64,000 nt of DNA from Clostridia bacterium. Lineage in GTDB: Bacteria > Bacillota > Clostridia > Oscillospirales > Acutalibacteraceae. A model generated the notes under the pieces. It did not search any database and was not told the origin of the DNA. It saw only the letters and a program-made list of their open reading frames with translations. Every line of letters begins with the position of its first letter. The stretch's first letter is position 1. Both the position numbers and the translations under genes were made by a program. Of this stretch, positions 9,006-25,160 are shown one piece after another. The DNA lies in NCBI GenBank assembly GCA_017451425.1, contig JAFSPP010000029.1, forward strand, positions 1 through 64,000, written 5' to 3'.

Positions 9006-9011
9006 TTTATT

Positions 9012-9197
9012 ATCACCCGCCGAGCCGGGGTCCCGGAAATATTAACCTGCATATAGGCAGGTGGGTGCCCACTGTCCACTACCGTGCTCCCAGCGTCCCG
9101 CAAAGAAACGGGGAGGTCTGCACTCCATTTCCAAGTTAAGCTCCCTTTTAGTGTGTGTTGGGTTAGTATTCGGGAGAATCGAACCCGGCAGGCTTTT
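9012..9197 (-). ncRNA. ssrS: 6S RNA (ssrS) candidate
   Basis: About 186 nt on the minus strand with no plausible protein. The two ends form a long closing stem (GCCGGG with CCCGGC, CCTGCC with GGCGGG, TCCCG with CGGGA). A central open region is followed by an extended upper hairpin (CTCCC/GGGAG, CGTTTC/GGGACG). On the 3' side is GTGGGCACCCACCTGC followed by a 6-bp hairpin ACCTGC/GCAGGT. The GGCACCCACCT element with that small hairpin is characteristic of 6S RNA in many phyla, including Clostridia. 6S mimics an open promoter and binds housekeeping RNA polymerase. It ends at a shared terminator and starts 5-10 nt after the DUF1292 stop. I see no strong promoter of its own, so it may be processed from the DUF1292 transcript. 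Confidence 0.7.
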
Positions 9198-24815: not shown

Positions 24816-24848
24816 AGCAGTTCGCTCATTCGAGCGAACTGCTTTTTT
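24816..24848. terminator. Bidirectional terminator
   Basis: AGCAGTTCGCTC pairs perfectly with GAGCGAACTGCT around ATTC. T-runs flank both sides, so it ends the lipoprotein operon (+) and the tRNA-Leu transcript (-). It begins immediately after the CCA end of the tRNA. Confidence 0.93.
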
Positions 24849-25160
24849 GGTGCCGGTAACCGGGGTCGAACCGGTACGGTGTTGCCACCGAGGGATTTTC
24901 GTACCACTCTATGTCGCCATAGCCACTTTCGTGTTGTGGTCTGGAGCTCGTCTTCACCATATCTTGCGATTCAGGTGGTCGGTGTAAGCTCTCTACACTC
25001 GGTCTTATGACCTAGCACGGCGTTCTCTGAGCGCCTTCGCCGTTTTAGCCGACTTCTGCACCGACGGTTTCCCGCCAGGCACTCTCTGAGACAGTCTCAG
25101 TCTGCAAAATGCAGAGCTCAGATTAAAGTCCCTTGCGTCTGCCAATTCCGCCATACCGGC
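24848..25160 (-). tRNA. tRNA-Leu(UAA) interrupted by a group I intron
   Basis: The 5' exon (25160-25126, 35 nt) and 3' exon (24899-24848, 52 nt, with encoded CCA) join to an 87-nt leucine tRNA. The acceptor is GCCGGTA/TACCGGC. The D-arm contains AATTGGCAGAC. The anticodon stem AGGGA/TCCCT closes the loop C-T-T-A-A-A-A (anticodon UAA). The long variable arm is CGGTG-GCAA-CACCG, and the T-arm is ACCGG-TTCGACC-CCGGT. The gene is broken after the first anticodon base, the same position as the classic cyanobacterial and plastid tRNA-Leu intron. Read without the intron it looks like two unrelated tRNA fragments. Confidence 0.93.
24900..25125 (-). other. Group I intron (IC3-like) in tRNA-Leu(UAA), 226 nt, no ORF
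   Basis: The 5' exon ends in CTT and an internal GAG 6 nt into the intron pairs with it (P1, with the terminal U-G pair). The intron ends in G (omega-G) before AAAATCCC. P3 is GTCGGTG with CACCGAC (7 bp). P5 is ACGGCG with CGCCGT. P6 is GGTC-ATAA-GACC. The R-like segment GTGTAGAGAGCT and the S-like GACGAGCTCC form P7 through GAGCT/AGCTC. P8 uses CACC/GGTG. P9 is ACCAC/GTGGT with an internal GCGA tetraloop hairpin. P2-region hairpins are TCTGC/GCAGA and CTGAGA/TCTCAG. There is no room for a homing endonuclease, so it should be self-splicing and immobile on its own. Confidence 0.88.

What the first reader, a model, noticed from the sequence alone, without database searches (positions are those of the whole stretch)
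24848..25160. Group I intron inside tRNA-Leu(UAA) of a Clostridia-type bacterium
Removal of 226 nt yields a perfect leucine tRNA whose acceptor, D, anticodon, variable and T arms all pair. The intron has the P1 U-G splice pair, P3 (GTCGGTG/CACCGAC), P5, P6, P7 (GAGCT/AGCTC) and P9 elements, and a terminal G. It sits after the first anticodon base, the same site as the ancient intron of cyanobacterial and plastid tRNA-Leu(UAA). Its first nucleotides (exon CTT, a short spacer, then GAG) even form P1 in the same way. I know of this intron mainly from cyanobacteria and plastids, so an occurrence in a Firmicute means wide lateral transfer or independent insertion. It has no endonuclease ORF. Tools that expect an uninterrupted tRNA will miss the gene.
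Basis: partly seen in the sequence, partly recalled or inferred. Interest (0 to 1): 0.9.

Follow-up and report, generated by a model that had tools for sequence, protein, structure and literature searches.

The report
tRNA-Leu intron with L1–P4 pseudoknot
[quoted passage not shown] the same intron type sits, with a DNA-cutting enzyme gene, in phage tRNA genes.

Summary
On the minus strand, 24848-25160 is a tRNA-Leu(UAA) gene with a 226-nt insert between U34 and A35. Relatives carry the uninterrupted gene. The guide sequence is the GAG just 5' of P2, not the GAG at intron nt 7-9. Rfam's group I model misses it.

The important part was not in the finding. About 40 homologues at the same site (Candidatus Limimonas, Ruminococcus albus, R. 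flavefaciens, R. callidus, phage contigs) share a derived architecture: L1 is usually enlarged, P5 is absent, and intron nt 4-10 pair with 7 nt of the loop capping P4. Fifteen distinct helix versions form 104 of 105 pairs. Ordinary IC3-like introns at the same site in related Clostridia keep P5 and lack the pairing.

Some phage copies carry HNH endonuclease genes in P6, suggesting a mobile origin; tree support is weak. No other tRNA-Leu(UAA) was found in the genome, so splicing is probably essential. Splicing itself is inferred. I rate it a new variant of a known kind; no description was found, but only open-access papers were searched.

The parts
25126..25160 (-). tRNA-Leu(UAA) exon 1 (acceptor 5' strand, D arm, anticodon stem 5' strand, C32 U33 U34)
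24848..24899 (-). tRNA-Leu(UAA) exon 2 (A35 onward, long variable arm, T arm, acceptor 3' strand, encoded CCA)
24900..25125 (-). group I intron, 226 nt, between U34 and A35; ends in G (24900)
25116..25122 (-). 5' strand of the new L1-P4 loop helix, intron nt 4-10, UCUGAGC
25026..25032 (-). 3' strand of the new helix, GCUCAGA, in the loop capping P4 where P5 normally sits
25101..25115 (-). first L1 hairpin (UCUGC..GCAGA)
25086..25100 (-). second L1 hairpin (CUGAGA..UCUCAG), strongly covarying
25082..25084 (-). internal guide GAG of P1, pairs with exon CUU (U.G at the splice site)
   Evidence: CG, UA, UG in 40/40; position next to P2 shared with ordinary introns
25057..25081 (-).
25049..25053 (-). 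P3 5' strand GUCGG
   Evidence: C-G to U-A covariation
25038..25042 (-). P4 5' strand CGGCG
25018..25022 (-). P4 3' strand CGCCG
24997..25016 (-). P6 and P6a (GCU-A-GGUC..GACC-G-AGU); site of HNH genes in phage copies
24987..24991 (-). P7 5' strand GAGCU (G-binding site)
24978..24982 (-). P3 3' strand CCGAC
24955..24977 (-). P8
24944..24948 (-). P7 3' strand AGCUC
24903..24940 (-). P9 region with GCGA tetraloop hairpin

Best explanation
[quoted passage not shown] In the derived subfamily to which it belongs, the P5 hairpin has been lost and replaced by a 7-bp pseudoknot between intron nt 4-10 (in L1, enlarged in most members) and the loop capping P4. After transcription the RNA folds. P1 (exon CUU with the guide GAG next to P2) presents the 5' splice site, and the L1-P4 helix takes the place of P5 and ties the P1 region to the P4-P6 scaffold. 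Exogenous GTP bound in P7 attacks the 5' site, and exon 1 then attacks after the terminal G, giving tRNA-Leu(UAA). The subfamily also lives in phage tRNA genes, in part as a form with an HNH endonuclease gene in P6; the ORF-less bacterial copies probably descend from such forms. Shown: exon and intron borders, the helices, absence of P5, phage copies with HNH ORFs. Inferred: splicing, essentiality, stacking in place of P5, homing, phage origin.
For: Borders from intronless relatives. P2, P3 and P7 covary. P1 CUU/GAG with U.G at the splice site in 40/40. New helix: 15 distinct versions, 104/105 pairs formed versus permuted mean 72.4, maximum 93; on alignment A3 99.6% of cells paired, 5 of 7 pairs with double changes, covariation 0.657 versus 0.171 shuffled and at most 0.108 when slid. 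P4 loops of this subfamily have almost no stem potential (1-2 bp in all versions but one, which has 3 including wobble), whereas ordinary introns at the same site have P5 stems of 3-7 bp. No tRNA-Leu(UAA) among the other long-arm tRNAs of the genome: the leucine ones are TAG, CAG, GAG and CAA. Phage contigs carry the same architecture in tRNA-Leu(UAA), several with HNH ORFs in P6. The tree nests Limimonas introns with phage ones.
Against: No RNA data and no splicing assay. Assemblies are mostly MAGs (the own genome is 94.9% complete), so another tRNA-Leu(UAA) could lie in a gap. Tree support for a phage origin is weak (53-80%). Base pairing says nothing direct about whether the new helix stacks on P4 or acts transiently. 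In a few members (L085, L088, L128, L134) nt 4-10 could also form a local hairpin.
Confidence: 0.85

Rival explanations
1. The nt 4-10 helix is a regulatory switch rather than a P5 substitute: it forms instead of the active fold, or transiently, and holds the 5' end until folding or a signal releases it.
For: The helix lies 3 nt from the splice site, and in some members nt 4-10 can also make a local hairpin.
Against: It is compatible with P1, P2, P3, P4, P7 and P8 at once and goes together with the absence of P5, which fits an architectural role better. No aptamer-like element is visible.
Confidence: 0.1
2. Ordinary cyanobacterial-type tRNA-Leu(UAA) intron inherited or transferred from cyanobacteria, with nothing structurally new.
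For: Same insertion site, same IC3-type elements, P1 guide GAG; ordinary same-site introns with P5 do occur in the same bacterial family.
Against: P5 is absent and replaced by a covarying long-range helix; Rfam Intron_gpI does not find it; the nearest relatives found are Clostridia and phage introns. A cyanobacterial tree was not run.
Confidence: 0.04
3. A decayed, non-splicing insertion that inactivates the tRNA gene, with another tRNA-Leu(UAA) in an unassembled gap.
For: No RNA data; the genome is a 66-contig assembly.
Against: Helices are maintained by compensatory change across genera and phages; the exons pair perfectly; no second tRNA-Leu(UAA) was found.
Confidence: 0.01

Closest known systems
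Group IC3 introns of cyanobacterial and plastid tRNA-Leu(UAA) (Anabaena type)
   Same: Same gene and U34/A35 site, 3-bp P1 with GAG guide and U.G, P2-P9 order, terminal G (site and general anatomy of the cyanobacterial intron from established knowledge; own elements).
   Different: L1 enlarged with two hairpins, P5 hairpin absent, 7-bp L1-P4 loop helix; Clostridia and phage hosts.
Ordinary tRNA-Leu(UAA) group I introns of the same and neighbouring Clostridia families (for example L032/L087 Gallacutalibacter, L090 Massiliimalia)
   Same: Same site, same 3' domain including GGCTATGG.RACATAG, similar P7 and J8/7.
   Different: They keep P5 and a short L1, and L090 and L009/L032 score 62.7 and 56.4 bits with Rfam RF00028.
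Azoarcus tRNA-Ile IC3 intron (crystal structure)
   Same: P4 CGGCG with A-rich joints, R and S elements, GNRA loops on P2 and P9 (recalled from the literature, not aligned here).
   Different: It has a regular P5 and a short L1 (recalled).
Group I introns of phages with HNH homing endonucleases
   Same: ORF in a peripheral loop, HNH family.
   Different: Those covered by the 2014 review sit in protein genes only (PMC3984707); these sit in tRNA-Leu(UAA).

Membership tests
Group I intron | P3-P7 pseudoknot core with P7 G-binding site | tested here: met
   P3 and P7 both covary.
Group I intron | P1 with U.G at the 5' splice site and terminal G | tested here: met
   CUU/GAG in 40/40; every extracted complete intron ends in G, but the extraction pattern itself required that G.
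Group I intron | P4-P5-P6 scaffold domain | tested here: not met
   P4 and P6 present, P5 hairpin absent; a long-range helix lies in its place. Loss of P5 is why this is called a variant; the catalytic-core features are met.
Group I intron | Match to Rfam RF00028 at gathering score (a detection criterion, not a biological one) | tested here: not met
   two ordinary same-site introns with P5 do pass.
Group I intron | GTP-initiated self-splicing | not testable with these tools
   Needs an in vitro assay.
Subgroup IC3 | Subgroup-specific model or P7 signature | tested here: inconclusive
   Only RF00028 was available, not the 14 subgroup models; ordinary same-site homologues match RF00028 and look IC3-like.
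Cyanobacterial tRNA-Leu(UAA) intron lineage | Monophyly with cyanobacterial introns | not tested
   No cyanobacterial intron sequences were in hand; the tree holds bacterial (mostly Clostridia) and phage introns only.
Archaeal/eukaryotic BHB tRNA intron | Bulge-helix-bulge intron, canonically at position 37/38 | tested here: not met
   Intron lies at 34/35 and carries a group I core.

The most novel reading that the evidence does not exclude
A distinct subfamily of group I introns, carried by phages and spread by HNH homing endonucleases into tRNA-Leu(UAA) genes, has replaced the P5 hairpin by a pseudoknot to the intron's own 5' end. The ribozyme thus couples splice-site presentation to scaffold formation. 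A phage copy that still has a P5 hairpin whose loop pairs with L1 (L131) is a possible evolutionary intermediate.
Probability: 0.6. Interest if true: 0.78.

Novelty: new variant of a known kind. Interest (0 to 1): 0.7.

Why it matters
The P4-P5-P6 domain is treated as the fixed scaffold of group I ribozymes. Here evolution has dissolved P5 and rebuilt a helix in its place from a distant strand, a testable case of RNA scaffold replacement. Rfam's group I model missed every copy of this architecture that was tested, so introns of this kind in Ruminococcus and other gut Clostridia are probably unannotated and their tRNA-Leu(UAA) appears missing. Phage tRNA-Leu genes with HNH-bearing copies give a concrete route for tRNA intron transfer; a 2014 review stated that phage group I introns sit only in protein genes (PMC3984707).

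Tried and rejected
First impression that AAGATAT marked J8/7: rejected by comparison with L009, where the J8/7-P7 segment lines up with AAGACGA-GCTCC. First reading of the nt 4-10 helix as competition with P1: dropped once the guide was relocated next to P2. ARAGORN's Phe(GAA) call: an artefact of intron placement. Type B covariance model over 391 class and 398 phylum genomes found only the own genome: rare, or lost to strict filters. blastn of a phage copy against INPHARED phages: no match. A cyanobacterial tree was not run for want of sequences. Of the RF00028 hits in the family, L035, L038 and L039 showed no tRNA-Leu(UAA) exons and were not pursued.

Full report
What is there. The minus strand of 24848-25160 reads as a tRNA-Leu gene with a 226-nt insert. 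ARAGORN finds no tRNA in the window by default. With introns allowed it finds this gene, but slides the intron by one nucleotide and names it Phe(GAA). Relatives in the same family settle the border: they read GGGACTTAAAATCCC where this gene has GGGACTT-[226 nt]-AAAATCCC. Five congeners carry the same insert at 86-96% identity, 6 of 11 genomes of the genus in all. Two congeners (G004, G007) have the intronless gene between the same neighbours, in the opposite orientation. Named relatives are Candidatus Limimonas (L070, L078). The other leucine tRNAs detected in the own genome have anticodons TAG, CAG, GAG and CAA, so this gene is probably the only reader of UUA.

It is a group I intron. In the six genus sequences P2 and P6a covary, P3 is GTCGG/CCGAC and covaries C-G to U-A, and P7 is GAGCT/AGCTC and changes to GAGTT/AACTC in two species, one in each subclade. 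Across the homologues P7 also takes the forms GACTA/TAGTC, GACTT/AAGTC, GAGTA/TACTC and GAGCA/TGCTC. The intron alone folds at -78.7 kcal/mol, z = -3.45. Its P3 uses the 3' strand of P2. Its P1 uses a GAG at nt 7-9 that is AAG in three congeners. In all 40 relatives of this architecture, and in the ordinary introns, the guide GAG directly precedes P2.

Rfam does not see it. Intron_gpI gives no match in this region even at E<=10 and none at gathering score in the type B loci scanned. It does match ordinary same-site introns: L009/L032 at 56.4 bits and L090 at 62.7 bits, with scores below the cut-off for others in the family.

Two architectures at one site. One pattern scan of GTDB r220 genomes returned 58 loci. 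With those from earlier searches, 66 introns (including duplicate records of the same locus) were extracted by script, all at the same position of tRNA-Leu(UAA). The pattern was designed on the 3' end of known members, so this is not a census. Type A has a short or hairpin-extended L1 and a P5 hairpin of 3-7 bp. Type B, to which the window's intron belongs, mostly has an L1 enlarged with two hairpins, and a 14-15 nt loop on P4 with almost no stem potential (1-2 bp in all versions but one). Type B is found in Limimonas, Ruminococcus albus 8, R. flavefaciens FD-1, R. callidus ATCC 27760 and several MAGs.

The new helix. RNAalifold on six sequences paired nt 4-10 (UCUGAGC) with GCUCAGA in the P4 loop, with a G-C to A-U change in three species. 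The larger set makes this decisive. Fifteen distinct versions exist, among them UCUGAGC/GCUCAGA, UCUAAGC/GCUUAGA, UGUUUGU/ACAAACA, UGUUUAC/GUAAACA, UCUAUUC/GAAUAGA, UCUUAGC/GCUAAGA, UGUAUUC/GAAUACA, UGUGUUU/AAACACA and UCUUGGC/GCCAAGA. 104 of 105 pairs form. Shuffling partners among versions gives a mean of 72.4 and a maximum of 93 in 10,000 trials. In each sequence the best 7-nt stretch of the loop was taken as partner, which favours pairing somewhat; alignment A3 (40 sequences, fixed columns) is free of that choice and gives 99.6% paired cells and covariation 0.657, against 0.171 in shuffles and at most 0.108 when slid. All 34 pairs of the 5' half reach 98.2%. Four type A introns scored in the same way reach only 3-5 of 7. 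The helix crosses P1 and P4, so it is a pseudoknot, but it uses no nucleotide of P1, P2, P3, P4, P6, P7, P8 or P9.

Phage copies. Scans of IMG/VR found the same intron in viral contigs of up to 175 kb, in tRNA-Leu(UAA) genes. Several carry an HNH endonuclease gene inside P6 (L111, L112, L113). Genes near the introns in L110, L111, L112 and L129 match phage families. L131 has a P5 hairpin whose loop, UACCUUAA, is complementary over 8 bp to UUAAGGUA in L1: a single case, but a plausible intermediate. In an intron-core tree Limimonas introns group with L068 and phage introns L110, L135 and L113, and Ruminococcus introns with phage L112 and L129, at supports of 53-80%. That suggests, but does not establish, repeated transfer from phages followed by loss of the endonuclease gene.

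Mechanism. By the established group I pathway, GTP bound in P7 cuts after U34 in P1, and exon 1 then joins A35. The part specific to this subfamily is inferred: the L1-P4 helix substitutes for P5 and anchors the strand just 3 nt downstream of the 5' splice site onto the P4-P6 scaffold. A switch role is possible but less likely.

Known or new. In the parts read of a 2014 review of bacterial group I introns there is no mention of such a build, and it states that phage group I introns are all in protein genes (PMC3984707). The tRNAscan-SE 2.0 paper reports group I introns hiding fMet and Ile2 tRNAs (PMC8450103). Ten full-text searches found nothing on Ruminococcus or Limimonas tRNA introns or on an L1-P4 loop pseudoknot, but subscription journals, GISSD and the Comparative RNA Web Site were not searched. 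I file it as a new variant of a known kind: a group I intron by its core, with one usual element (P5) tested and absent.

Noticed in passing
window 9010-9197 (-): 6S RNA (Rfam RF00013, 57 bits).
   Followed up: no
L131 6500-6760: Phage contig intron in a tRNA-Leu(UAA) with both a P5 hairpin and an 8-bp L1-L5 complementarity; possible intermediate between the two architectures.
   Followed up: partly
L114 intron ORF: HNH ORF has an in-frame TAG at codon 2 where a relative (L112) has CAG; suggests a phage that reads TAG as an amino acid. Some other contigs carry CUA-anticodon tRNAs that ARAGORN labels Pyl.
   Followed up: no
L112, L130, L135: Intron-bearing phage tRNAs with anticodon UAA but a short variable arm, unlike normal tRNA-Leu.
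   Followed up: no
L080: Type B intron of 403 nt with an insertion of about 170 nt in the first L1 hairpin.
   Followed up: no
L054 and L096: Two different type B tRNA-Leu(UAA) introns on two contigs of one MAG (RGIG2815): two gene copies or a mixed bin.
   Followed up: no
L051 (G176:C7:3631-3708): Weak model hit in what looks like a group I intron of a different tRNA gene, with 3' exon AATCAGTAGG.
   Followed up: no
L085, L088, L128, L134: Type B members without L1 hairpins, in which nt 4-10 could also fold into a local hairpin (GUCU-UAGC-AGAC type), an alternative to the pseudoknot. L085 and L088 lie on contigs dense in tRNA genes that may be viral.
   Followed up: partly
G004 and G007 versus window: Intronless tRNA-Leu(UAA) of two congeners lies between the same neighbours but in opposite orientation.
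   Followed up: no
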